A DNA stretch of 58,657 bases from Ruminococcus flavefaciens (GTDB lineage: Bacteria > Bacillota > Clostridia > Oscillospirales > Ruminococcaceae): the NCBI GenBank assembly GCA_023662725.1, contig JAMPIL010000010.1, forward strand, positions 1-58,657, in the 5' to 3' direction. Made by a program: the position numbers and the translations under genes. Under the pieces are notes generated by a model. The model was not told where the DNA came from. It ran no database searches and was given only the letters and a program-made list of their open reading frames with translations. Within the stretch, counting starts at the first letter, position 1. The number at the start of each line of letters is the position of its first letter. Below are positions 38,743-51,255 of the stretch, piece after piece.

Positions 38743-40266
38743 TTATTCCGCCAATGCAATGGTAACTTCAATTGTTCCTGATAAAGCATCCAGCTTTTCC
38801 TGCGATTCTGTAATATGTCCCAGTGGAACGAGATTTCCTGTATTAGCGGATAATTCTTCATCGTCTACAAAGATAACAAAATTTTTAGCAAGCGTCCAGA
38901 ACATTAAATCACCGTTTTTATAACCGCTTTGAACGTCACTTTCACTGTATGATATATCCAGTCTGCCGCCGCAGAAATCATTATCGGAATCATTCAGAAT
39001 TACAGTAAGCGGAAGCTGTTCAATCAGACTTTTTGCCGGAGCAGAATTGTTCAGATACGCATTCAGAACAGTATCTCCTATTGTAAGCGTTACGGCAGTT
39101 TGTTCACTTGCATTTCTGTCGAGTTCCATACTTTTTATCCATTCTGAAAGTTCCTCACTGACATCGCTTTGCTCTGTACGCAGACGTAAACCGTCCTTTA
39201 CATCGGAATCCGGACAAAGCGAGCGTATATTTTCCGTACTATCCTCGATACTTACCGCCATACTTGTACAAAATGGAATAATTGTCTTTCCCGAAAAATC
39301 ATATTCTTCAAGAAATGTGCGAATCGCCATTGGCTCCATATGCCACCAGATTGGAAAACCAATATACACGGTATCATACTGCTGCATATTATCCACATGT
39401 GTTACCAGTGCAGGTCTTGCATCGGCTCGCGTTTCCTCCCCTGCAATAGCTGAACAATCACTGTGACCTACCGGATAAATTTCTTCCGGTACGATTTCAA
39501 ACAAGTCACCGCTTGTTATATTTTGAATCTGTCTGGCAACAGATGCTGTATTTCCAACAGCAGGAGTTGCACTTGCAACTGCGTCTGCATCTGCATCCAT
39601 ATATCTTTCTCTTGAAAAGTAAGCAATCAGGGTTTTATTTTCTTCTGCAAGTTCAAACGTCACATCTGTATTTCCGATTCCGTTAAAAACTTCTACACCG
39701 GAATCAATTCGTCCGACTTTCTGCATCTCAAACTGCTCGCCGTTTTGGGCATACATGATTACGAAACTGTGACGAGGCGGCCAATATACAATCTCGCCAA
39801 CCTCATAACCGGTATACTGTACATCATCTGTCGGAAGTTCATCGGGGAAACGATAGCACATTTCACGTCCGTAAAGATCAAGCATTGGCAGAGTTACAGG
39901 AAGCTGCTCTGCAAACGCTCTCGCTGTTGCGTTATCATATAATGTTGCCGTCAGTTCCTGACCGTTTACAGTAAGCTTGATTTTGATTTCTTTATTTGCA
40001 TTCATGGAGTCCATTACATATTGTCTCATAAGACAAAGATCAAACGCGTCCCATCTGTCATCATCGTTTAAATCGTAGTCCTTGCCGCTTAGATCCGGCG
40101 TTTCTCTGGCAACCAGAAAATCCTGCAAATTACGGATATCTTTAATTGTATACTCTGCTGTACCTACTGCTTCTACTGTCTCCAACGTTTTTGGTATTGC
40201 TCTTGCTGAAACAACAGTCAAAGCACATAAAACAACTGCCGCAAAAATAGAAAAAAATTTTCTCAT
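38743..40266 (-). CDS. Secreted dockerin - cyclophilin-like - flavodoxin - cyclophilin-like protein, 507 aa
   Basis: The ATG at 40266 (AGAGGTG upstream) opens a signal peptide (FFSIFAAVVLCALTVVSARA). A dockerin-like region follows (residues ~35-85): IKDIRNLQDFLVARETPDL, YDLNDDDRWDAFDLCLMRQY; the second calcium loop is clear and the first is degenerate. Next come a type A cyclophilin-like domain, a long-loop flavodoxin domain (TLIAYFSRERYMDADAD, VGNTASVARQIQNITSGDLF, FPIWWHMEPMAI) and a type B cyclophilin-like domain. It should be exported and perhaps held by a cohesin scaffold. An unusual fusion. Confidence 0.8.
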   Translation of the reverse strand: MRKFFSIFAAVVLCALTVVSARAIPKTLETVEAVGTAEYTIKDIRNLQDFLVARETPDLSGKDYDLNDDDRWDAFDLCLMRQYVMDSMNANKEIKIKLTVNGQELTATLYDNATARAFAEQLPVTLPMLDLYGREMCYRFPDELPTDDVQYTGYEVGEIVYWPPRHSFVIMYAQNGEQFEMQKVGRIDSGVEVFNGIGNTDVTFELAEENKTLIAYFSRERYMDADADAVASATPAVGNTASVARQIQNITSGDLFEIVPEEIYPVGHSDCSAIAGEETRADARPALVTHVDNMQQYDTVYIGFPIWWHMEPMAIRTFLEEYDFSGKTIIPFCTSMAVSIEDSTENIRSLCPDSDVKDGLRLRTEQSDVSEELSEWIKSMELDRNASEQTAVTLTIGDTVLNAYLNNSAPAKSLIEQLPLTVILNDSDNDFCGGRLDISYSESDVQSGYKNGDLMFWTLAKNFVIFVDDEELSANTGNLVPLGHITESQEKLDALSGTIEVTIALAE

Positions 40267-40283
40267 TTCAATCACCTCTAATA

Positions 40284-40517
40284 TTATACTTTATGTTTCT
40301 TTTCCCAGATGATAAAATCCAGTTTATCAAGAAGTTTCTGCTTTTCATGAATATCATCAAGCAACTTCCGCCGATGTCTGCGAACCATACGAATCTGTTC
40401 TTCATCGTTTGGCGATGTTTCTGAAAGTTCAAGATAATCTTTGATTTCTTCCGGTGTAAATCCAACATCTGTGAGCAGCTGGATCAGTCCGCTATTCTCA
40501 TACTTTTTCGATGCCAT
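40284..40517 (-). CDS. Orphan small helical protein A, 77 aa
   Basis: An all-helical, charged protein: LIQLLTDVGFTPEEIKDYL, then RMVRRHRRKLLDDIHEKQKLL and DKLDFIIWEKK. It resembles the effector-side dimerisation helix of MerR regulators but has no DNA-binding domain. Two paralogues occur at 46039 and 50024, each next to redox genes. It is the first gene after the shared-operator promoter at 40585 and lies 18 bases before the dockerin gene. A role as a co-regulator is possible but unproven. Confidence 0.65.
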   Translation of the reverse strand: MASKKYENSGLIQLLTDVGFTPEEIKDYLELSETSPNDEEQIRMVRRHRRKLLDDIHEKQKLLDKLDFIIWEKKHKV

Positions 40518-40584: not shown

Positions 40585-40641
40585 ATTATACACTACGCAT
40601 TCAAATATGTCCAATGCTTATATTTTATACTTCAGTATGCC
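40585..40641 (-). promoter_or_regulatory. Redox regulon promoter 1 with GCAT-N15-ATAAGCATT operator
   Basis: On the - strand GCAT is followed after 15 bases by ATAAGCATT, which runs into a -35 TGGACA (40608-40613); 17 bases on is TATAAT (40585-40590). It drives the operon from 40517 leftward. The same layout occurs at four other promoters in the window. Confidence 0.75.
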
Positions 40642-40642
40642 T

Positions 40643-41512
40643 TTATTGTATACTTTTCAGATGTTCCAGAAATTTGCCGGTCGCACTTGAAAACGGCTGA
40701 AATTTTTTCCAAACCAGTACTGACGTCATAGAAAGCTCCGGATAAAGAGGCTTAAATACCAATAAATTTGGATCAAATAAATCAACTGCGCCTTCAATCG
40801 TGAGAGCATAAGCGACTCCATGGGATACAAGCATAGCAACGTTGGTAATAATATTGTAAGTCGCAAAAATATTCAGCTGTGACAAATCATTGTCAAACCA
40901 GTTTGAGAGTTCTTTTTGCAAACTCAGACGATTTGATGTAATCAAAGGAAACTTGTATAAATCCTCTTTGGTGACATATTCCTTTTCCGTCAAATCGCAG
41001 TCAGCAGGCATTAAAATGCCCCAGCGTTCTTTTTCTTTCAGCCGGATATAATCATACTTCGCAATATCGACCGGTTCAAGCAGCAGTCCGAAATCAAGCA
41101 GACCTTTATCCAGACGTTCTTTGACATAGTCGGCATTGTTTGTATAAAGTTCGTACTGCACACGGGGATATTTCTTCTGAAAAGCTTTCATAACATCGGG
41201 AAGTATCTTAGATGAATTCAGACCTCCGCTTCCAATGGAAATGGTTCCGCTGACATCGTTTTGTCCCTCGAATTCGCTTTCAATTTTATCCATCAATTCG
41301 ACTACTTCTTCCGCACGGCGACGAAGCATCACTCCAGAATCTGTAAGAGTAAGGTGACGTCCTCTTGCAAATAACTGCACACCCAGTTCTTCTTCCAGCT
41401 GCGAAATCTGACGACTCAATGTAGGCTGTGTTATATGCAGTACCTCAGCCGCCTTTGATATATTTTCTTCCCTGACGACCGTAAGAAAATATTGCAAAAC
41501 ACGAAGTTCCAT
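40643..41512 (-). CDS. LysR-family regulator 1, 289 aa
   Basis: A typical LysR: winged helix MELRVLQYFLTVVREENISK, AAEVLHITQPTLSRQISQLE, LGVQLFARGRHLTLTDSG, then a periplasmic-binding-like effector domain (FEGQNDVSGTISIGSGGLN onward). It lies after the cupin gene in the leftward operon, and its stop is next to promoter 1. It and its relatives at 43665 and 49620 are the best candidates to bind the shared operator. Confidence 0.85.
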   Translation of the reverse strand: MELRVLQYFLTVVREENISKAAEVLHITQPTLSRQISQLEEELGVQLFARGRHLTLTDSGVMLRRRAEEVVELMDKIESEFEGQNDVSGTISIGSGGLNSSKILPDVMKAFQKKYPRVQYELYTNNADYVKERLDKGLLDFGLLLEPVDIAKYDYIRLKEKERWGILMPADCDLTEKEYVTKEDLYKFPLITSNRLSLQKELSNWFDNDLSQLNIFATYNIITNVAMLVSHGVAYALTIEGAVDLFDPNLLVFKPLYPELSMTSVLVWKKFQPFSSATGKFLEHLKSIQ

Positions 41513-41516
41513 TTCT

Positions 41517-41921
41517 TCACTTCAAGCTGTTATAGTCGTCATCAGATACAGGCTCAAGCCATTCGTTTGAAGTATCATCGCCGGGTACTTCCACAGCAAG
41601 ATGCTGAAACCAACTGTCAGGAGCTGCACCATGCCAATGCTTTACCTCCGGAGGGATATTGATTACCATTCCTGGAGTCATTTCAATTGGTTCTTTTCCC
41701 CATTCCTGATAATATCCTCTTCCTGCGGTGCAAAGCAGAATCTGACCGCCTCCCTTTGTTGCGTGGTGGATATGCCAGTTATTGCGGCAACTCGGTTCAA
41801 ATGTCACGTTTCCGATGCCGACCTGTTGTGTGGAAAGCATATTCAGATAGCTCTGTCCCACAAAAAACTTTGCATAGGCTTCATTCTTTTCCCCGATCGG
41901 GAATACGCTTAACTCTTTCAT
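41517..41921 (-). CDS. Cupin-domain protein, 134 aa
   Basis: A single cupin barrel with the metal site in WHIHHATKGGGQILLCTAG and the second motif PPEVKHWHGAAPDSWFQHLA. Proteins of this kind commonly sit next to carboxymuconolactone decarboxylase-like genes and may bind quinones, catechols or hydroperoxides. The Glu usually present in motif 1 is replaced in this spacing. It is 4 bases from LysR 1 and follows the aldo/keto reductase by 20 bases. AAGGAAA precedes the ATG. Confidence 0.8.
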   Translation of the reverse strand: MKELSVFPIGEKNEAYAKFFVGQSYLNMLSTQQVGIGNVTFEPSCRNNWHIHHATKGGGQILLCTAGRGYYQEWGKEPIEMTPGMVINIPPEVKHWHGAAPDSWFQHLAVEVPGDDTSNEWLEPVSDDDYNSLK

Positions 41922-41941
41922 GATAAATTTCCTTTCTGTAA

Positions 41942-42802
41942 TTATTTACCGCTGAATACAGGGAAATGACTATATTCCCCGTAATTCTTGATTTGCTCCA
42001 TATGTTTCAGTGCTTCCATATCCGCGTCATCTATCGCAAAATCCACCTTTGCATTATCACACATATGAACAGGATTTCCGGTTTTCGGAAGTGAAATTGT
42101 GCCAAGCTGCAGTGTGTAACGAATACAAAGCTGCGGAACAGTCACACCGTATTTTTCCGCCATTGCAATCACAGCGTTATTTTTCAGGATTTCTCCGTGT
42201 GCGATCGGTGAATATGCTTCAACAAGCATACCCTTGCTTTCAGAATAAGCAATCAAATCTAAAGGAGTATTGCTGACATGGACAAGCAGTTGATTTGCCA
42301 TTGGTGCAACGCTGCATTCAGACAGAATATTATCTATATCATCTTTTTCAAAGTTAGAAATTCCGATTGCACGGAGTTTTCCTGCTTTATATGCATCTTC
42401 CAATGCACGCCACGCCTCGTGATTTCCGTCAGAATAACGACTTCCGTTATGAAATTCATTCCACGGCTGAGGACTGTGGATCAGCATCATGTCGATATAA
42501 TCCAAACAAAGCTTTTTCAGAGAGCCGTCAATTGCTTCCGCTGCTTTTTTATAGTCTTTTATTTCGGCAGCAAGTTTTGTTGTGACAAACAGCTCCTGAC
42601 GTGAAATGCCGCAGCGGCGAACGCCCTCTCCCACACCTTCTTCATTTCCGTATGCCTGTGCTGTATCAAAATGGCGGTATCCGATTTTAACTGCTTCACA
42701 TACAGCCTGCGGAGCGTCAGCATTGTCAATAAACCATGTTCCCAGACCGAGTTTAGGAATTTTCACTCTATTTGACAACGTATAAGTTTCTTCAAGAATC
42801 AT
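41942..42802 (-). CDS. Aldo/keto reductase, 286 aa
   Basis: Family signature and catalytic tetrad are present: GLGTWFIDNADAPQAVCEAV, GYRHFDTAQAYGNEEGVGEG with catalytic Asp and Tyr, the Lys in VTTKLAAEI, and LDYIDMMLIHSPQPW with His. The NADPH-binding end reads SLPKTGNP. It reduces aldehydes or ketones in the cytoplasm; the substrate is unknown. GGGAGG precedes the ATG. Second gene of the leftward unit starting at 43516. Confidence 0.9.
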   Translation of the reverse strand: MILEETYTLSNRVKIPKLGLGTWFIDNADAPQAVCEAVKIGYRHFDTAQAYGNEEGVGEGVRRCGISRQELFVTTKLAAEIKDYKKAAEAIDGSLKKLCLDYIDMMLIHSPQPWNEFHNGSRYSDGNHEAWRALEDAYKAGKLRAIGISNFEKDDIDNILSECSVAPMANQLLVHVSNTPLDLIAYSESKGMLVEAYSPIAHGEILKNNAVIAMAEKYGVTVPQLCIRYTLQLGTISLPKTGNPVHMCDNAKVDFAIDDADMEALKHMEQIKNYGEYSHFPVFSGK

Positions 42803-42823
42803 AATTATTTCCTCCCGATATTC

Positions 42824-43516
42824 TTATTTGCAGACTTCATTGATGCAGGAAATCGCATTCAGCGTTCTCGGATATCCGATATACGGCAGACACGTTGTGA
42901 TGCAGTCTATCAGCAACTGTTTTGTATTTCCAACGCTCAGATTTGCAGCAGCATGTGCCTTTGCCTGCGGTTCGCATCCGCCTATGGAACAAATCACCGT
43001 GAACGTGATAAGCTCACGCATTTTCAGATCGAGTGTTCCACGGGTATAATAATCGCCGAAACAATTTGCTGACAGACAATCCTGTATATGCTTTGTTTCC
43101 TGCGGCGCATTTTCACGCATCGTATCGATATGCTCCTTGCCGAATATCTGCTGCTGCACAGCGAGACCTTTTTCAAACCGAGTCTGCGGTGTAACCGTAG
43201 ATTGGCTTATTTCTGCGGGATCAATATTTTCCGCAAGGAATGTTTCATTGACTACGGCAAGCGCTTCCTTTACTCTCGGAAAACCGATATACGGGACAGT
43301 CTGGTACAAAGCCTCCTTGATCTCAGTTACTGTTGCACCACATTTTAAAGCCTCTTTTACTTTTTCAGGAATCTCATTCAAAGTTTGAATTGCCGTAAGA
43401 CAGGCAAGACATATCAAAGCATTCGTCTTTGTATCCTTCAGACCGTTTTCTGCAATCTCGCTGCTTAGAAACGCCTTCTGAATCTCCGTAAAATCAAAGT
43501 CATAATTTTCAGCCAT
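42824..43516 (-). CDS. Carboxymuconolactone decarboxylase-family protein, two domains, 230 aa
   Basis: Two AhpD-like helical domains: the first from FLSSEIAENGLKDTKTNALI to YQTVPYIGFPRVKEAL, the second from DYYTRGTLDLKMRELITFTV to ITTCLPYIGYPRTLNAI. Neither shows a CxxC pair, so peroxidase activity of AhpD type is unlikely. The ATG at 43516 behind GGAGGAATT is chosen; the longer frame begins inside the promoter. It is the first gene after the shared-operator promoter 2. Confidence 0.85.
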   Translation of the reverse strand: MAENYDFDFTEIQKAFLSSEIAENGLKDTKTNALICLACLTAIQTLNEIPEKVKEALKCGATVTEIKEALYQTVPYIGFPRVKEALAVVNETFLAENIDPAEISQSTVTPQTRFEKGLAVQQQIFGKEHIDTMRENAPQETKHIQDCLSANCFGDYYTRGTLDLKMRELITFTVICSIGGCEPQAKAHAAANLSVGNTKQLLIDCITTCLPYIGYPRTLNAISCINEVCK

Positions 43517-43549
43517 ACAAATTCCTCCGATTTCCTTTTTTATACTTAT

Positions 43550-43607
43550 ATTATACCTCAAATGCCGACAATATGTCAAATGCTTATGCTGAATACTTAA
43601 ATATGCT
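43550..43607 (-). promoter_or_regulatory. Redox regulon promoter 2 with GCAT-N15-ATAAGCATT operator
   Basis: On the - strand GCAT (43603-43606), 15 bases, then ATAAGCATT joined to TTGACA (43574-43579) and TATAAT (43550-43555) after 18 bases. It drives the decarboxylase-like, reductase, cupin and LysR 1 genes. Confidence 0.75.
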
Positions 43608-43635
43608 TGACAGGTATAGAAAAATGTGGTACGAT
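43607..43635 (+). promoter_or_regulatory. Promoter of LysR gene 2
   Basis: TTGACA (43607-43612), 17 bases, TACGAT (43630-43635). It begins where the divergent operator ends, so one bound regulator could act on both directions, as is common for LysR autoregulation. Confidence 0.65.
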
Positions 43636-43664
43636 ATATGTATCAAAGGTTTGGAGGCAGCGTC

Positions 43665-44555
43665 ATGGAATTCAGGGTTTTAGAATATTTTTTAGCAGTT
43701 GCAAGGGAGCAGAGCATATCCGGTGCGGCAGAATTTCTCCATTTGTCACAGCCCACGCTTTCACGTCAGCTGAAAGATATGGAGGACGAACTGGGTAAAC
43801 AGCTTTTTATCAGAGGAAACAGACATATTACGTTAACAGAAGAAGGAATGCTGCTGCGGAAACGTGCAGAGGAAATCGTGGATTTAGTGCATAAAACGGA
43901 AGATGACATTAAATTCTCTGATGAGGTGATTTCAGGCAGCGTTTATATAGGCGCAGGGGAAACGGACGCAGTACGATTGATTGCTAAAGCTGCACAAAAA
44001 CTGCAAAAAGAATATCCGCTGATCCGATACCATATTTTCAGCGGCGACGCTCCAGATGTTGCCGAGCGACTGATCAAGGGACTGCTTGATTTTGGAATTT
44101 TATTTGACCCGATAGACTTATCAAAATTTGAACATATGAAAATGCCAATGAAAGATACATGGGGTGTACTGATGCGAAAGGATTCACCGCTTGCAGAAAA
44201 GGAATCTGTCACACCGCAAGACTTATGGGACAAGCCACTTATCGTATCTCGTCAGCAGGAGGAAACCAGTGCGCTTTCAAAGTGGATGATTAAACCATTT
44301 GCAAAATTGAATGTTGCCGCTTCGTACAATCTGGTTTATAACGCTTCTTTAATGGTGGATGAGGGAATGGGATATGCGCTTTGTCTGGACAAACTCATTA
44401 ACGTATCGGGAAACAGCAATTTGTGTTTCAGACCGTTATATCCAAAATTGGAAGCAGAAATGAATTTTGTCTGGAAACGATATCAGGTTCTTTCTAAGGC
44501 AGCGGAAAAATTTCTGGAATACTTTTCGGAAGAACTGAAACAATTTCATCAATAA
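43665..44555 (+). CDS. LysR-family regulator 2, 296 aa
   Basis: Winged helix MEFRVLEYFLAVAREQSISG, AAEFLHLSQPTLSRQLKDME, followed by ISGSVYIGAGETDAVRLIAK and a normal effector domain. The ATG at 43665 behind GGAGG is preferred to an upstream ATG at 43626. It is divergent from the decarboxylase operon and shares its control region. Closely similar in design to LysR 1. Confidence 0.9.
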   Translation: MEFRVLEYFLAVAREQSISGAAEFLHLSQPTLSRQLKDMEDELGKQLFIRGNRHITLTEEGMLLRKRAEEIVDLVHKTEDDIKFSDEVISGSVYIGAGETDAVRLIAKAAQKLQKEYPLIRYHIFSGDAPDVAERLIKGLLDFGILFDPIDLSKFEHMKMPMKDTWGVLMRKDSPLAEKESVTPQDLWDKPLIVSRQQEETSALSKWMIKPFAKLNVAASYNLVYNASLMVDEGMGYALCLDKLINVSGNSNLCFRPLYPKLEAEMNFVWKRYQVLSKAAEKFLEYFSEELKQFHQ

Positions 44556-44558
44556 AAC

Positions 44559-44591
44559 AAATGCCGCAAAGATTATTTCTCTGCGGCATTT
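44559..44591. terminator. Bidirectional terminator
   Basis: AAATGCCGCA and TGCGGCATTT form a 10-bp stem between the converging LysR 2 and cyclophilin-like genes. Confidence 0.8.
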
Positions 44592-44597
44592 ATTTCC

Positions 44598-45155
44598 TTA
44601 ATTTTCTGTCAGTGACAGTGTAACAGTTACATCACCATCACCGAGTATTTCCAATAAACTTTCTTTTGTGGCATTGTTGATTTTCCCAAGTCTTGTAAAA
44701 TTCCAGCTGTTCGTATCGTAATATATAACAAACGAATTTCCCTGATACAGGATCAAATCACCCGGTTCAGTGGTGATCTGCTCGTCATTACGAGGCAGAC
44801 TTGTTCCCAGCGAACCAACCTTTTCAAAATTTGAATAGTCGCTCATATTAATTGTCAAAGGATTTTCTTCAAGAATTTCTAAAAGAGCCTCAGTTGATGA
44901 GTTTTCAACCAGCGTTGCTGTAAGGTTATGCTCTCCAACATGAATATTTATAATCATGTCAGTTTCCTCCTGTATTTCAGAATCCACTTTTGTTTGTGAT
45001 GCTTTTTCTTCCGATATTTGAACTTTCTTTTCTGATATAGTTTGACTTTCTGTTGTAGTGACAGCAAAACTTTGCATATTTTCAAACTTACTTCTGCATC
45101 CGGTAATGGTCAAGAATAAAGGTAGAATTATCAAGCATATTATAATGTTTTTCAT
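44598..45155 (-). CDS. Cyclophilin-like-fold lipoprotein (type C domain), 185 aa
   Basis: Lipobox FLTITGCRSK, a Glu/Thr linker, and one cyclophilin-like domain: DMIINIHVGEHNLTATLVEN, TINMSDYSNFEKVGSLGTSL, DLILYQGNSFVIYYDTNSW. A stretch of about 200 bases is nearly identical to the C-terminal domain at 46287. It is the last gene of the leftward unit from 49303. AGAGGT precedes the ATG. Confidence 0.75.
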   Translation of the reverse strand: MKNIIICLIILPLFLTITGCRSKFENMQSFAVTTTESQTISEKKVQISEEKASQTKVDSEIQEETDMIINIHVGEHNLTATLVENSSTEALLEILEENPLTINMSDYSNFEKVGSLGTSLPRNDEQITTEPGDLILYQGNSFVIYYDTNSWNFTRLGKINNATKESLLEILGDGDVTVTLSLTEN

Positions 45156-45172
45156 TTACTATACCTCTTTAA

Positions 45173-46021
45173 TTATATCTCTTTAAGTTTTACATGTACA
45201 TTTCCGCTATCTAAACCTGCTATGCCGTTTTTCAATGGAAGCCAATTCAGTATTTTAGGAATCTGACTATTCCAAAATGCCCAGTTGTGCATACCTGTTG
45301 CTTCTTAATACGTTATGTCTATACCGTTTTCTTGTAGTAAATCCCTGAATATTCGATTTACGCCAATAAGGTTATCTTTCAGACCACACGCCATATACAC
45401 TTTCGGAGAATTAGCAGACTTGCAGTAATTTCCGGATTGAATGAAATTTTCCAAAGCAACACGAGGGTTTTTATCGATCATTCGTGCTTCTTCAATATTT
45501 CCAAAACAACCGTCCTCATGAAACAAACAACGCCCTATTTCATCTGCCGGAGTTTCAAAAATATTCAATGCACTGGAAAGCGCCGCAATATATCCGAAAG
45601 TATCATGATATTTAAGACCGTTTCTAAGTGCTCCGAATCCTCCCATAGAAAATCCTGCAATAAATGTATCTTCTCTGTTATGAGACAGTGGAAACATTTT
45701 TCTTGTAACATGAATCAATTCTTTTCCGATAAATTCTCCATAATTATTATTGGGAATCGGAGAGTCCACATAAAAAGAATTGTCACCGGAAGGCATAATA
45801 ACCGCAAGATTCTTTTCAGAAGCAAGTGCCTGTATATTTGACTGTACAGTCCAGTCCGTATAATTTCCAAGAAGTCCATGCAATAAGTATAATGTCTTGA
45901 ATGGCTTCTGTTCGTCTGTTTCAACAACACCGCCAAAAAGTTTATCTACAGGCAGAATAGCCATAAAAGGAACTGTTCTTTTGAGTGCGTCAGAAATAAA
46001 ATTCACCTGTAATAAAGCCAT
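45173..46021 (-). pseudogene. Alpha/beta-hydrolase esterase with in-frame TAA before the catalytic His
   Basis: The fold resembles tributyrin/feruloyl-type esterases: TLYLLHGLLGNYTDW, then the nucleophile elbow AGFSMGGFGALRNG and the acid region ACGLKDNLIG. The frame stops at TAA 45305-45307 but continues open as EATGMHNWAFWNSQIPKIL, which holds the catalytic His, and ends at 45173. Without read-through the enzyme lacks its His. AAAGGAGCG precedes the ATG. It follows the small helical protein by 17 bases. Confidence 0.75.
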
Positions 46022-46038
46022 AAAACGCTCCTTTCTGC

Positions 46039-46266
46039 TTAAACTTGTTTCTTTAACTGATATACAAGATAGTCAAGGCAATCTATTTGCTTTTGTTCTT
46101 TGTGTATTTCGTCCAGTAAAAAGCGTCTGTGTGACTCCAGTAAACGAAATCCGGATCGCATACTTCCATTTTTCATGTCTTCGACAAACTCAGAAATTAT
46201 ATCCGTATCACAGCCGGCATCTTTCAGATTCTGAATAATGTCAATTTCAGAAGTATATTTTATCAT
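46039..46266 (-). CDS. Orphan small helical protein B, 75 aa
   Basis: The ATG at 46266 with AGGAAGG is preferred to one at 46290. YTSEIDIIQNLKDAGCDTDI leads to LLESHRRFLLDEIHKEQKQI and DCLDYLVYQLKKQV. It is paralogous to 40284 and 50024, sharing HRR-x-LLD-x-IH-x-x-QK and LDYLVYQL. It is placed between the dockerin/flavodoxin gene and the esterase. Confidence 0.65.
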   Translation of the reverse strand: MIKYTSEIDIIQNLKDAGCDTDIISEFVEDMKNGSMRSGFRLLESHRRFLLDEIHKEQKQIDCLDYLVYQLKKQV

Positions 46267-46286
46267 TGTATTTTCCTTCCTGTTTT

Positions 46287-48628
46287 TCAATCTGCCAGCG
46301 ACAGCGTGACGGTTACATCTCCGTCACCAAGTATTTCCAACAAGCTTTCTTTTGTGGCATTGTTGATTTTTCCAAGTCTTGTAAAATTCCAGCTGTTCGT
46401 ATCGTAATATATAACAAACGAATTTCCCTGATACAGGATCAAATCACCCGGTTCAGTGGTGATCTGCTCGTCATTACGAGGCAGACTTGTTCCCAGTGAA
46501 CCAACCTTTTCAAAATTTGAATAGTCGCTCATATTAATTGTCAGAGAACCTGCTTCGAGTATTTCTTTCAGAGCCTTTGCCGATGAATTATCACACATTT
46601 CTGCTGTAAGCGTTGTATTTCCAACAGTGATATTCATTGTGTATTCTCCTTCTGATTTCACATTATTTTCTTTCAGCCACTGGTCTATTTCCTCCTCATC
46701 ATAGGAAGAATAGGTAACGTCAAGACCTTTTTTCATTATGCTGTCGGGAGTCAGCTTTGCGACCATGCTGATCGTCTGACCAAAACGTCCGCCGCCCATG
46801 GAACAGAACGGTATAATTGTTTTACCGCCATATTCAAGCCTACATCTTCAAGGTATGCTTTAAGTTCGGGAACTTCATTTGCCCTTATTTCATCTAACGC
46901 TTCTCCATATAGTCTAGTGGAATTTGATGTTGCAGAATACGGCACGGCACGTTCAATACGGAAAATATTAGCGTTTGTTTTTTCGGCTATCATTTTAGCA
47001 AAACCGTCGGTATTGCCTGTCTGAGAAAAATATGCAATAAGCACTTTACCATTATTACTGTCATTTGAAACAGATTTGTACTGACTGGTAACTGTTTCAT
47101 TGGTGAGTTTGGCGCTTCTTACAGGACGTATGCCTATGCCGTAAAATGGAACATCGGCAGGAAAAGCACTTCTGTATGCGCTTCTGATATGCTTTGGCAT
47201 ATCATTCCAACCGCCGCCGCGTGCGATTTTGTAATTGCCTTCTTTTGCGCCTGTCGGGTCAGAAGTCTGATCATTGTATTCACCGTACCAATCCCATACC
47301 CATTCGGCTGCATTACCATGCATATTATACAGCCCAAAATCATTTGCATTATAGCTGTCAATATCAACTGTATGCTGTAAGTAGCCATTTACCCAGCGAC
47401 CGCTTGCATCATTATTGTAGCCATAAGCATTATAACAGTTTGCGTCGTCATCGTTTACATAGTCGCCAAAAGAGAACGGAGTATCTGTATTTGCCCTTGC
47501 CGCATATTCCCATTCTGCCTCTGTCGGCAAACGATAGCCGTTCGCATTTTTATTCCATGTAACTGTTTTTCCTGAAATTGTGTAACACGGTGTAAATCCT
47601 TCTTTAACACTCAGCTTGTTACAGTATTGTACGGCGTCATACCATGTGATATTGGTAACAGGAAGATTATCTCCGACATTTTCACTTGGATTATTCCCCA
47701 TAACTTCCTGATATTCCTGTTGCGATATTTCAGTTTTTGACATATAGAAATCGCCGACAGTTACTTGATGCTGAATCTCATCAAGACTGCGTTCAGGTTC
47801 GCTTTCAGGACTGCCCATCTGGAATGTTCCGCCCTTTATAAATTCATATTGCGCATTATTGTTTTTTATTTCTGCGATTTCAGCCTGCTTTTCATTCATC
47901 CAATCGCCAACACTTTCTTTAGTCGCAGTTGAAGCAAAACGCTTTCCTTCCAGTTGAGTGCCGATTGTAATAAGATTTGCAATATTTTTTTCACTTGTGG
48001 AAATACCGCTGCTTGCGGAAGTACAAAACGGAATGACGATTTTATCCGAGAAATCATAGCTTTCAAGGAATGTATCAATAATACGTGGTTCTTCGCCCCA
48101 CCATATCGGGTAGCCAAGATAGATAACTTCATAAGCGTCAATAGAATCGATCGGGTCGGCAATTTCAGGACGAACAGTTTTACCGCTCTGCTCTCTGTTT
48201 GCACGGCAGGAAGAATTATTATAACTAATATCCTCATCGGTATATGGAATAGCAGCTTCAATTTCATAGCTGTCCGTATTTCCCAATTCTATCAGATATT
48301 CAGCAATTTTCTCCGTATTGTTTGTGCGTGAGAAGTATACAACCAGTGTGTCATTATTTTCCGAAAGCTGTTCAGAAAAATATTGTCTCATAAGACATAA
48401 ATCGAAAACGTCCCACCTGCCGTCTTTGTTCAAATCATAGTCTTTACCGCTTAAATCCGGTGTTTCTCTGGTAAGCAGGAAATCTTGTAGGTTTTTAATA
48501 TCTTCAATTGTGTATTTTATTGTTCCCGCAGCTTCAACTGGCTTATATGTTTTTTGTATACCTACGATTGGAACAAATGCAAAGGCACATAAAACAACTG
48601 CAGTAAAAATAGAAACTATCTTTTTCAT
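46287..48628 (-). pseudogene. Secreted dockerin - flavodoxin - SUMF1-like - flavodoxin - cyclophilin-like protein, frameshifted
   Basis: Signal peptide (IVSIFTAVVLCAFAFVPIVG), dockerin-like region (IEDIKNLQDFLLTRETPDL, YDLNKDGRWDVFDLCLMRQY), flavodoxin 1 (DTLVVYFSRTNNTEKIAEYL, YLGYPIWWGEEPRI), and a full SUMF1/FGE-like domain (FIKGGTFQMGSPESEPERSL, YRLPTEAEWEYAARANTDT, NMHGNAAEWVWDWYGEY, KIARGGGWNDMPKHIRSAYR) with no catalytic Cys. Flavodoxin 2 has YFSQTGNTDGFAKMIAEKT but loses about 27 residues and the frame near 46835. It resumes as GKTIIPFCSMGGGRFGQTIS and ends in a type C cyclophilin-like domain. Confidence 0.75.
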
Positions 48629-48733
48629 GTTATCACCTCTCTGATAAACTGTTCCGCCAGATGAGCGCTTCCCGTAATCACTACTATTTTCATTGAAAAT
48701 TCCTCCTGTTGATTTTTATTTGTTAAGATCGAT

Positions 48734-49303
48734 TTATTCCGTATCAACCTTTTTTATGAATTTTGCAGGCACACCGCCAAAAATGCAGTTTTCGGGTACA
48801 TCACAGTTTACAACTGCACCGCCTGCGATAATTGCACCATCGCCTATGCTCACACCGGGAAGAATGGTAGAATTTGAACCTATCCATACCTTGTTTCCGA
48901 TGTGGATCGCCGACGGTATCAGATTTCCACGTTTTTGAGGATTCTGATGATGATTCAGAGTTGCAAGTACAACATTGTGACCGATCAGAACATCATCTCC
49001 AATATAAATTCCGCCCTGATCCTGAAACTTACAACCTGCATTAATAAACACATTTTTACCTAAGTGGATATTTATCCCACAATCAGAATAAAACGGTGGA
49101 AACAATCCGAGATTTTCAATTTTATGAGTTGTAAGCTTTTCCATAAGTTCCTGCAATTCACTTGGTTCATGATAGCTGTCATTCATCTTATGAGTTATCT
49201 TCAACGCTCTCTGAGAAAGACTGTGCATATGAATATGCACTGGCGAATCTGCCTGCATTTCTTTTCCGGTATTCATGATATCAAGAAATTCCTTATCTGT
49301 CAC
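48734..49303 (-). CDS. Maltose/galactoside O-acetyltransferase-like protein, 189 aa
   Basis: A left-handed beta-helix acetyltransferase: [16 protein letters not shown], an N-terminal helical cap, then hexapeptide repeats ([40 protein letters not shown]) with the catalytic His region [14 protein letters not shown]. It moves an acetyl group from acetyl-CoA to a sugar or small molecule. Intact, with GGGAGG before the ATG, and first gene after the shared-operator promoter at 49328. Confidence 0.9.
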
Positions 49304-49327
49304 ATCAATTCCTCCCTTTTTGTTTCA

Positions 49328-49384
49328 ATTATATCATACCTCTCTACAAATTACAAATACTTATATCGAATAGAATACTATGCC
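49328..49384 (-). promoter_or_regulatory. Redox regulon promoter 3 with GCAT-N15-ATAAGTATT operator
   Basis: On the - strand GCAT (49380-49383), 15 bases, ATAAGTATT joined to TTGTAA (49351-49356), 17 bases, TATAAT (49328-49333). It drives the acetyltransferase and probably the dockerin, esterase and lipoprotein genes to its left. Confidence 0.7.
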
Positions 49385-49389
49385 TATAA

Positions 49390-49446
49390 AGCATATCAGA
49401 GCATCCAATATAAGTATTTGTATTTTTTTACGCTTTGTGCTATAAT
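49390..49446 (+). promoter_or_regulatory. Redox regulon promoter 4 with GCAT-N15-ATAAGTATT operator
   Basis: On the + strand GCAT (49391-49394), 15 bases, ATAAGTATT joined to TTGTAT (49418-49423), 17 bases, TATAAT (49441-49446). It is back-to-back with promoter 3. The gene it once served survives only as a flavodoxin tail and a broken LysR. Confidence 0.7.
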
Positions 49447-49451
49447 TTTAG

Positions 49452-49586
49452 CAGAGAAGCTGGATAGACTGTTTTGAAAAAGCTGAATTAAAAGGTACTG
49501 TTTTCTTTGGAGGTGTTAATTCTACTGCCGATATTGTAAACAATCAAAAGCTTGATGAAGCTTTTGATTTGGGAAGAAGTGTGTAA
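49452..49586 (+). pseudogene. C-terminal tail of a flavodoxin/NAD(P)H oxidoreductase
   Basis: The frame SWIDCFEKAELKGTVFF, then GGVNSTADIVNNQKLDEAFD and LGRSV looks like the last strand and helix of a flavodoxin-like oxidoreductase. It begins a few bases after the -10 box, so the start and most of the gene were deleted. Confidence 0.5.
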
Positions 49587-49619
49587 GATTCTTACTAATG
49601 TATACGGAGATGTTGGAAT

Positions 49620-49934
49620 GAAAATTAGAGTATTACGTTATTTTTTGACCGTCGCAAGGGAGGAAAATATCACCAAATCCGCCGAAAAGCTACATATCAC
49701 ACAGCCTACGCTCTCACGGCAATTAAAGCAGTTGGAAACGATTCAATATTTGTGCGTGAGGGACTTGGCTTGATATTGACTTTTTACAAACTCGTTAATA
49801 CTACAAACGGCAGCGGACTTATATTTCGCCCTCTCACTCCAAGGCTTGAAACAAAGCTTTATATTATATGGAAAAAATATCAGGTATTTTCACCGATGGC
49901 GGAAAAATTGATAGAGTTAATTCAAAATAGTTGA
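49620..49934 (+). pseudogene. LysR-family regulator 3 with large internal deletion
   Basis: The winged helix is complete (MKIRVLRYFLTVAREENITK, SAEKLHITQPTLSRQLKQLE). The text then jumps, in another frame, to the C-terminal end of the effector domain (REGLGLILTFYKLVNTTNGS, LIFRPLTPRLETKLYIIWKK). About 190 codons are missing. The remaining HTH could still bind DNA, but the product lacks a ligand domain. Confidence 0.75.
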
Positions 49935-49945
49935 TATAAGTTTTA

Positions 49946-50002
49946 GGCATTTCTTGTAATACAAAATAAGTATTGGACATTTCAGAGCTTCGCTGATATA
50001 AT
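49946..50002 (+). promoter_or_regulatory. Redox regulon promoter 5 with GCAT-N15-ATAAGTATT operator
   Basis: GCAT (49947-49950), 15 bases, ATAAGTATT joined to TGGACA (49974-49979), 17 bases, TATAAT (49997-50002). It drives the small helical protein C and the hydrolase. Confidence 0.75.
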
Positions 50003-50023: not shown

Positions 50024-50251
50024 ATGATTTGTTTTGAAACTCAGCTGGAGGAATGTCTGATCGATGCTGGTTGTTCCAAAAAGGAGAGATCAGAAATTTT
50101 GCAATTCTATTCTGAAAGTAACATACAGCAGATGATTTCTCTGCTTCGTATGCACAGAAAAGTCACTCTTGATATGATTCATGCAGGCGAAAAACAAATC
50201 AGTTGTCTTGATTACCTTGTTTTTCAGCTTGAAAAAGAATTACAGAAATGA
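50024..50251 (+). CDS. Orphan small helical protein C, 75 aa
   Basis: MICFETQLEECLIDAGCSKK, then LLRMHRKVTLDMIHAGEKQI and SCLDYLVFQLEKELQK. Paralogue of the proteins at 40284 and 46039. AAGGAG lies before the ATG and promoter 5 is directly upstream. No DNA-binding motif is seen; it is probably a helical hairpin dimer. Confidence 0.65.
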   Translation: MICFETQLEECLIDAGCSKKERSEILQFYSESNIQQMISLLRMHRKVTLDMIHAGEKQISCLDYLVFQLEKELQK

Positions 50252-50266
50252 AAGGCGGTTATGATT

Positions 50267-51255
50267 ATGGCAGAAACATTGAAATTAACAGCGGAATGGG
50301 ATAAGGTTTTTCCGAAAAGCGAAAAAGCAGACCACAAAAAAGTGACGTTCATAAACCGTTACGGAATAACATTGGCAGCGGATATGTATACACCAAAAAA
50401 TGCACAGTGCAAGCTTGCGGCAATTGCAGTCTGCGGACCGTTCGGAGCAGTGAAAGAACAGTCAAGCGGATTGTATGCACAGACAATGGCAGAACGTGGT
50501 TTTCTCACCATTGCGTTTGACCCGTCATTTACAGGAGAGAGCGGCGGTATGACGAGATATATGGCTTCTCCCGATATCAACACTGAGGACTTTATGGCGG
50601 CAGTTGATTTTCTTTCCGTGCAGGAAAATGTTGATGCCGAAAAAATCGGGATAATCGGCATTTGCGGCTGGGGGGGCTGGCATTGAATACGGCAGCTCTT
50701 GATACCAGAATCAAGGCTACAGTTGCTTCAACTATGTACGATATGTCAAGGGTCAATGCCAACGGCTATTTCGATGCTGAAGACAGTGAAGAGCAGCGTT
50801 ATATCAAAAAGCAAGCGATGAATGCCCAGCGCATTGATGATTACAAATCAAAAAGCTATGAACTTGGTGGCGGAGTTGTCGACCCTCTGCCAGAGGACAC
50901 TCCGTTTTTTGTAAAGGACTATCATTCTTACTACAAGACAGAACGTGGTTATCATAAGCGTTCACTCAATTCAAACTGTGGCTGGAATAAGATTGGTTGT
51001 ATGTCGTTTATGAATCAGCCTATCAACTGCTATACCAATGAGATCAGAAGTGCAGTACTAATCATGCATGGTGAAAAGGCGCATTCATGTTATTTCAGCA
51101 AAGACGCATTTGCTGCAATGACAACTGACAGCAAGTATAACGACAATAAGGAGCTGCTCATTATTCCCGATGCTGTACATACCGATCTTTATGACGATGT
51201 GAATGTGATTCCGTTTGATAAAATGACTGGATTTTTTAATGAGGCTTTTAAATAA
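50267..51255 (+). pseudogene. Dienelactone-hydrolase-like alpha/beta hydrolase, frameshifted in a G run
   Basis: The first part holds FINRYGITLAADMYTPKN, AVCGPFGAVKEQSSGLYAQT, ERGFLTIAFDPSFTGESGG and the elbow IGICGWGG. The frame breaks in a G7 run at 50673-50679; eight Gs would give GWGGLALNTAALDTRIKATV, which continues in the next frame to the end. The C-terminal part has VLIMHGEKAHSCYFSKDAF and the His in PDAVHTDLYDDV. The nucleophile is Cys rather than Ser, as in dienelactone hydrolases. The break may be a sequencing or assembly error. AAGGCGG precedes the start. Confidence 0.75.

What the first reader, a model, noticed from the sequence alone, without database searches (positions are those of the whole stretch)
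40585..50002. One bipartite operator, GCAT-N15-ATAAGYATT, at five redox promoters
Five promoters (40585-40641 -, 43550-43607 -, 49328-49384 -, 49390-49446 +, 49946-50002 +) share GCAT, exactly 15 unconserved bases, then ATAAGYATT running into the -35 box, with TATAAT 17 or 18 bases on. The intervening bases differ, so this is not a simple duplication. Constant spacing with variable filler is strong evidence for one DNA-binding regulator. LysR genes lie at three of the sites and are the natural candidates; the orphan helical proteins could assist.
Basis: seen in the sequence. Interest (0 to 1): 0.8.

Follow-up and report, generated by a model that had tools for sequence, protein, structure and literature searches.

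The report
Shared LysR-type operator in redox operons
Five promoters in a Ruminococcus-like bacterium share a two-box landing site for a family of LysR-type gene switches, and the same site sits beside relatives of these switches in other Bacillota: a new example of a known type of switch.

Summary
GCAT-N15-ATAAGYATT occurs exactly at the five stated places (shuffles expect 0.02), the only exact copies in the held 3.1 Mb draft genome. Reading it as a LysR-type (LTTR) operator is well supported but needs correcting.

The filler is not unconserved, and the motif is the inner part of an operator of about 45 bp: a first box AT-N11-AT centred about -66 from the inferred start, an AT at motif positions 13-14, and a second AT-N11-AT box over the -35 (about -36). 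This is classical LTTR geometry.

The site tracks an LTTR clade containing window LysR1 and LysR2. It adjoins 70 of 103 clade LTTRs collected by protein homology and 0 of 20 non-clade LTTRs, mostly from other phyla. In 398 Bacillota genomes, all 17 with a strict match are among the 30 with a clade LTTR.

It is not shown to be one regulator's site: two intact LTTRs and a decayed third share it, and S3/S4 share one recognition box. Which LTTR acts where, activation or repression, and the signal are unknown.

The parts
40605..40652 (-). Operator S1: recognition box AT-N11-AT 40637-40651 (overlaps the LysR1 stop codon), activation box 40607-40621 over the -35, -10 at 40585-40590; precedes the truncated-MerR / cyclophilin-flavodoxin genes
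   Evidence: the four nearest sites elsewhere are LysR1-tail sites
43571..43618 (-). Operator S2: recognition box 43603-43617 containing the -35 (TTGACA, other strand) of LysR2, activation box 43573-43587, -10 at 43550-43555; precedes CMD-aldo/keto reductase-cupin-LysR1
   Evidence: gene gaps 21, 20, 4 bp
49348..49395 (-). Operator S3: recognition box 49380-49394 (ATGCCTATAAAGCAT, shared with S4), activation box 49350-49364, -10 at 49328-49333; precedes the hexapeptide acetyltransferase / flavodoxin genes
49379..49426 (+). Operator S4: same recognition box 49380-49394, activation box 49410-49424 (weaker, TT instead of AT at its end), -10 at 49441-49446; precedes the LysR3 remnant
49935..49982 (+). 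Operator S5: recognition box 49936-49950 one base after the stop of the LysR3 remnant, activation box 49966-49980, -10 at 49997-50002; precedes a small MerR-like protein and an alpha/beta hydrolase
40643..41512 (-). LysR1, intact LTTR (HTH_1 + LysR_substrate)
   Evidence: Pfam; in the mostly tail-site half of the clade tree
43665..44555 (+). LysR2, intact LTTR, divergent from the S2 genes
   Evidence: Pfam; in the mostly divergent-site half of the clade tree
49618..49934 (+). LysR3 remnant: wHTH and C-terminal part in different frames, middle missing
   Evidence: HTH_1 hit, frame translations, blastx
40284..40517 (-). Small MerR-like protein a (no wing-helix)
   Evidence: PF09278 its only family above cut-off; alignment A1
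46039..46263 (-). Small MerR-like protein b
   Evidence: no Pfam family at 1e-3; alignment A1, 32% identical to a
50024..50251 (+). Small MerR-like protein c, first gene after S5
   Evidence: no Pfam family at 1e-3; alignment A1, 26% identical to a
42824..43519 (-). Carboxymuconolactone decarboxylase-like protein, first gene after S2
   Evidence: PF02627
48734..49303 (-). Hexapeptide acetyltransferase, first gene after S3
   Evidence: PF00132

Best explanation
The five sites are operators of one clade of LysR-type regulators. A tetramer is expected to hold the upstream AT-N11-AT box (centre about -66) and to reach along the DNA, past the AT at positions 13-14, to the second box over the -35 (centre about -36), where it controls RNA polymerase. 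In divergent loci the first box also covers the LTTR's own -35, so the LTTR should limit its own expression. LysR1, LysR2 and formerly LysR3 would read nearly the same sequence with similar DNA-binding domains but divergent effector domains. LysR1 sits in a gene row with a site at each end, so self-control is likely, with LysR2 a possible further input at S2. Shown: the sequence architecture and its association with the clade. Inferred: binding, tetramer, DNA contact, transcription starts, sign of regulation, signal.
For: All five exact copies in the held genome lie in this cluster. In the genus, exact matches with AT at 13-14 lie within 1.8 kb of a clade-LTTR midpoint in 29 of 47 cases, other exact matches in 1 of 48; genome-level Fisher 2e-10 over 120 genomes. 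Bacillota: 17 of 17 strict-match genomes are among the 30 of 398 with a clade LTTR at E 1e-55, Fisher 3.8e-22, backwards control 0 in every row. LTTRs gathered by homology: 70 of 103 have an adjacent site scoring at least 8; in the partly overlapping set, 47 of 68 reach 8, and 0 of 272 reversed regions reach 5. Non-clade LTTRs: 0 of 20 reach 5. Unsupervised motif search upstream of homology-only LTTRs recovers the same motif, log-likelihood 759 against 118-141 for three shuffled sets. AT at -10/-9, not used to pick sites, in 95 of 100, background 0.14; best dyad centre -3. -10 at position 51 in 106 of 139. LTTR's own -35 in the first box: 31 of 53 divergent, 1 of 21 tail, 2 of 22 other. Mean identity across the clade: wHTH 0.64, effector domain 0.40, a contrast that LTTRs in general show (recalled).
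Against: No binding or expression data. 33 of 103 homology-only LTTRs show no site at threshold 8. The three closest LysR2 relatives (79-89% identity, L092-L094) lack it upstream, so S2 may be LysR1's site rather than LysR2's. Two genus genomes have a match with AT at 13-14 but no clade LTTR found: G064 (about 82% complete, flavodoxin-type gene downstream) and G040. Conservation inside positions 1-38 is inflated because sites were chosen on them. The 20 non-clade LTTRs come mostly from other phyla, so they are a weak control. Association cannot separate joint inheritance of gene and site from binding.
Confidence: 0.9

Rival explanations
1. Strictly private wiring: each LTTR uses only its own sites (LysR1: S1, S2; LysR2: S2; LysR3: S3-S5), so S3-S5 are now unregulated relics.
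For: Nearest sites elsewhere differ: S1 to LysR1-tail sites; S3/S4 to the matching place in L051 and to sites beside LysR2-type genes (L063, L067, L068); S5 to sites of L082, L084, L088 and L106. Placement is clustered on the LTTR tree, 0 of 500 shuffles as low for tail or for div.
Against: S3-S5 keep the key positions although LysR3 is broken; sites also occur with no clade LTTR in the stretch held (L069, L078, L080), which suggests action at a distance.
Confidence: 0.3
2. The LTTR works mainly as a repressor relieved by a signal, as CcpC does at citB: the second box covers a good promoter.
For: -10 is TATAAT at 5 of 5 with 17-18 bp spacing; the second box contains the -35. CcpC: dyad near -66 plus half-dyad at -27 to -33 represses (PMC8514465, passages).
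Against: Most LTTRs with a box near -65 and contacts at the -35 activate targets and repress themselves (PMC4834489, passages); the -35 is imperfect at 4 of 5.
Confidence: 0.35
3. The motif belongs to another factor, e.g. the MerR-like small proteins or a sigma factor.
For: A MerR-like gene is the first recognised one after 63 of 139 sites.
Against: In the window these proteins lack the DNA-binding wing-helix; the dyad lies upstream of the -35, not between -35 and -10 as in MerR promoters (recalled); 76 of 139 sites have another or no recognised first gene; the site follows the LTTR clade.
Confidence: 0.04
4. Chance or recent duplication of a promoter.
For: S3 and S4 share a box; a cyclophilin-like stretch is duplicated nearby.
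Against: 0.02 expected by chance; non-key bases differ between sites and the pattern recurs across Bacillota families.
Confidence: 0.01

Closest known systems
Classical LTTR divergent operator (T-N11-A recognition site near -65, activation site near -35; ThnR, AccR)
   Same: Two AT-N11-AT boxes centred about -66 and -36; first box over the LTTR's own -35 in many divergent loci (PMC4834489 and PMC11602165, passages)
   Different: The promoter-side box is conserved in sequence (also in the unsupervised search), whereas the ThnR paper speaks of non-conserved sequences there; many sites sit at the LTTR's 3' end instead of in a divergent gap
CcpC at Bacillus citB
   Same: Dyad near -66 plus a second element near the -35, with boxes ATAA, TTAT, TATT (PMC8514465, passages)
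   Different: LysR1 and LysR2 score 77 and 65 bits against the CcpC model cut-off of 400; the genes beside the sites differ
CidR LTTRs
   Same: Best NCBIfam match of both LysR1 and LysR2
   Different: 148 and 141 bits against a cut-off of 415
FinR-fprA of Pseudomonas aeruginosa
   Same: LTTR at a divergent promoter of a redox gene; its site happens to contain ATAAGCATT (PMC5302815, passages)
   Different: The part shown to matter for binding is TATCCATATTCTGGATA; no GCAT-N8-AT part in the quoted site

Membership tests
LysR-type regulators (LysR1, LysR2) | N-terminal HTH_1 and C-terminal LysR_substrate domains | tested here: met
   both above Pfam cut-offs
Classical LTTR operator | T-N11-A palindromic recognition box near -65 | tested here: met
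   AT-N11-AT in 94 of 100 thinned sites, best dyad centre -3, i.e. about -66 from an inferred start; the start itself is not mapped
Classical LTTR operator | Second box near the -35 | tested here: met
   AT-N11-AT at 20-34 in 64 of 100; lies in the stretch used for picking sites
Classical LTTR operator | Recognition box overlaps the divergent LTTR promoter | tested here: met
   own -35 in the box in 31 of 53 divergent-class sites, 1 of 21 tail-class; met at S2, not applicable at the tail sites S1 and S5
Classical LTTR operator | Protein binding and ligand-dependent control | not testable with these tools
   needs gel shift, footprint, expression
CidR equivalog | Score above NCBIfam cut-off | tested here: not met
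   148 and 141 bits against 415
CcpC equivalog | Score above NCBIfam cut-off | tested here: not met
   77 and 65 bits against 400
OxyR | Score above NCBIfam cut-off | tested here: not met
   70 and 78 bits against 329, model NF008361
MerR regulators (small proteins of the window) | N-terminal MerR wing-helix DNA-binding domain | tested here: not met
   window proteins start after it in alignment A1; L150-L154, L157 and L159 have an N-terminal stretch of this kind, L158 and L162 do not; MerR_1 matches 8 of the 12 aligned proteins, not window protein a

The most novel reading that the evidence does not exclude
A Bacillota-wide LTTR network in which paralogous sensors with different ligand domains compete for one conserved two-box operator, chained so that one LTTR's target row carries the next LTTR (S2 to LysR1 to S1), and whose most frequent first target is a MerR protein that lost its DNA-binding domain and now acts as a feedback partner or antagonist.
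Probability: 0.15. Interest if true: 0.65.

Novelty: new member of a known kind. Interest (0 to 1): 0.42.

Why it matters
It gives a precise, testable operator for a family of LysR regulators that fits no NCBIfam model above cut-off among the 25 best listed for each of the two window proteins, and predicts its targets (flavodoxins, cupins, reductases, MerR-like small proteins) in Ruminococcus-like, Lachnospiraceae and other Bacillota. An operator shared by several paralogs makes cross-talk between paralogous regulators directly testable. Seven searches of the held open-access library listed no paper that, by title or abstract start, describes it.

Tried and rejected
Dyad ATAC-N4-GTAT centred on 8.5 looked like the recognition site at first (prominent in LysR1-type sites); extension to the left showed a stronger dyad at -3, so it was dropped as the main box. 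Chance, duplication and a MerR-type owner were rejected (see rivals). The reversed-sequence control was useless (the search simply finds the motif reversed); one search used three base-shuffled sets instead (10 starts each against 20 for the real set). The motif search on LTTR tails gave nothing clear (log-likelihood 255 against 246 reversed), so the tail class rests on the matrix scan. A first test for the LTTR's own -35 was off by one base and gave 0; one search is the corrected count. FinR and MleR papers found by letter search share only ATAAGCATT or ATAAGTATT; a third listed paper was not opened. No fold prediction was run.
Full report
OBSERVATION. The five sites are real and exact (5 found, 0.02 expected, 0 of 100 shuffles with 5). 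In the held genome (3,109,639 bases, 70 contigs) they are the only exact matches. With one mismatch the genome gives 20 against 13 for the backwards pattern, so the claim rests on the exact form. The -10 TATAAT begins at motif position 51 in S1, S3, S4, S5 and 52 in S2. I number the G of GCAT as 1, with a position 0 before it.

THE FILLER IS NOT FREE. AT at positions 13-14 is present in all five. Among the 95 exact matches in the genus, 47 have this AT and 48 do not. Of the 47, 29 lie within 1.8 kb of the midpoint of a clade LTTR and 45 are in genomes that have one; of the 48, 1 and 29. So the pattern as written mixes about equal numbers of likely true sites and likely chance matches. At genome level (120 genomes) the AT-bearing matches give 31 with match and LTTR, 2 with match only, 27 with LTTR only, 60 neither (Fisher 2e-10); the other matches give p = 0.05.

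THE FULL OPERATOR. A 38-position matrix was built from 30 distinct exact sites near clade LTTRs. On reversed sequence it scored 10 or more at 0 of 1,488,118 positions. At 12 or more, 139 distinct sites were collected from the loci held then, 100 after thinning at 80% identity. The positions to the left were not used for picking sites, yet AT at -10/-9 is in 95 of 100 against a background of 0.14, and the strongest dyad found is centred on -3, pairing -10/-9 with 4/3, -7 with 1 and -5 with -1. That is a T-N11-A box of the LTTR kind, of which GCAT is the inner half. A second AT-N11-AT (20/21 to 33/34) encloses the -35 in 64 of 100; ATAAGYATT is its outer half. With the -10 at 51-56 (start at 51 in 106 of 139) the transcript start should be near position 63 (inferred), which puts the boxes at about -66 and -36, the usual places for LTTR recognition and activation sites (PMC4834489 and PMC11602165, passages seen). 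In the window S3 and S4 share one near-palindromic recognition box, ATGCCTATAAAGCAT at 49380-49394.

WHO READS IT. (a) 103 clade LTTRs were collected by protein search, 49 in the genus and 54 in 398 Bacillota genomes, leaving out the window and loci first fetched for the motif. Sites scoring at least 8 adjoin 70 of them, 57 divergent and 13 at the tail; 33 show none. (b) For the 54 plus 14 loci from named genomes, 47 of 68 reach 8; 0 of 272 reversed regions reach 5. (c) 20 non-clade LTTR loci, mostly from other phyla: 0 reach 5. (d) A strict pattern (GCAT, AT at 13-14, ATARGYATT, G at 30, AT at 33-34) was found in 17 of 398 Bacillota genomes and all 17 are among the 30 of 398 with a clade LTTR at E 1e-55; the backwards pattern shows 0 in every row (Fisher 3.8e-22). 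(e) An unsupervised search upstream of 72 thinned homology-only LTTRs found the same motif, with the LTTR's own -35 in the left box. Of 8 Lachnospiraceae-titled LysR1-type loci (L153-L159, L161), 5 score at least 8 at the LTTR stop codon, one scores 7.9 there, two show none.

TWO PLACEMENTS. On a quick tree of 148 clade LTTRs one half (58 rows: 28 tail, 6 further downstream, 12 divergent, 12 none) holds LysR1, the other (90 rows: 60 divergent, 4 tail, 26 none) holds LysR2; the split between the halves is weakly supported (70), but the labels are clustered (0 of 500 shuffles as low for tail or divergent), which near-copies help. Divergent sites usually begin 45-100 bases upstream of the LTTR on the other strand; tail sites overlap or follow its stop codon and precede the next genes. 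In divergent loci the LTTR's own TTGACA often lies in the recognition box (31 of 53; tail 1 of 21; other 2 of 22), which predicts self-limitation. S1 and S5 are tail sites of LysR1 and of the LysR3 remnant; S2 is divergent from LysR2; S3/S4 are back to back before LysR3.

WIRING IN THE WINDOW. CMD, aldo/keto reductase, cupin and LysR1 follow S2 with gaps of 21, 20 and 4 bases, and the S1 recognition box overlaps the LysR1 stop. So LysR1 has a site at each end of its gene row. L150 and L162 show the same (in L162 LysR1 appears as two frames), without LysR2 beside the first site in the stretch held. The nearest LysR2 relatives (L092-L094) lack a site upstream. I therefore think S1 and S2 are most likely LysR1 sites, with LysR2 a possible second reader of S2. 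LysR3 is broken (wHTH in one frame, C-terminal part in another, middle absent), yet S3-S5 keep the key positions, so either LysR1/LysR2 have taken them over or the decay is recent. The first 40 residues of the LysR3 remnant match LysR1 at 31 and LysR2 at 26, which leaves cross-reading possible. Across the clade the wHTH is more alike (mean 0.64) than the effector domain (0.40), as is usual for LTTRs (recalled): one operator, probably several signals.

TARGETS. First recognised gene after 139 distinct sites: small or full MerR-like protein 63, flavodoxin type 13, hexapeptide acetyltransferase 8, alpha/beta hydrolase 8, cyclophilin-like 6 plus one with cyclophilin and flavodoxin parts, aldo/keto reductase 3, cupin 2, CMD 2, short-chain dehydrogenase 1, LysR3 remnant 1, other or unassigned 31 (recognised means similar to a window protein or to the MerR-like profile). 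'Redox' is a fair label for many of these; the signal is unknown.

LIMITS. No binding or expression data; starts are inferred; the matrix inflates conservation inside positions 1-38; most genomes used are unnamed or draft. Prior description was sought only (open-access library; listings, plus passages of five papers: PMC4834489, PMC11602165, PMC8514465, PMC5302815, PMC2834670).

VERDICT. A real, precise operator of an unassigned LTTR clade with classical geometry: a new member of a known kind. Interest lies in its breadth, the sharing by paralogs, the tail placement and the MerR-derived first gene.

Noticed in passing
40284-40517, 46039-46263, 50024-50251; L150-L162: The 'orphan helical' proteins resemble MerR proteins without the DNA-binding wing-helix; relatives in L150-L154, L157 and L159 keep that part. 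Of the 63 found after sites, 55 are under 100 residues by first start codon.
   Followed up: partly
49618-49934: Third LTTR gene reduced to its wHTH and a C-terminal piece in another frame, while the operators on both its sides keep their key bases.
   Followed up: yes
50261-51255: Alpha/beta hydrolase lies in two overlapping frames (50261-50686, 50662-51255); several relatives have one frame of about 330-400 residues.
   Followed up: no
38743-40275 and 46751-48628: Cyclophilin-like/flavodoxin and flavodoxin/FGE-sulfatase proteins; the first shows a short acidic D-N-D repeat that looks like dockerin (recalled by eye; Pfam listed no dockerin), so these may be secreted redox proteins.
   Followed up: no
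44598-45155 and 46287-46799: Two cyclophilin-like genes share a long near-identical DNA stretch, seen by eye: a recent local duplication or conversion.
   Followed up: no
L052 6104-6131: A good-looking site before a flavodoxin-type gene in genome G064, in which no clade LTTR was found at E 1e-40.
   Followed up: no
L069, L078, L080; L072 11646: Sites before reductase, flavodoxin or cupin genes with no clade LTTR in the stretch held (L069, L078, L080) or about 5 kb from one (L072): possible distal regulon members.
   Followed up: partly
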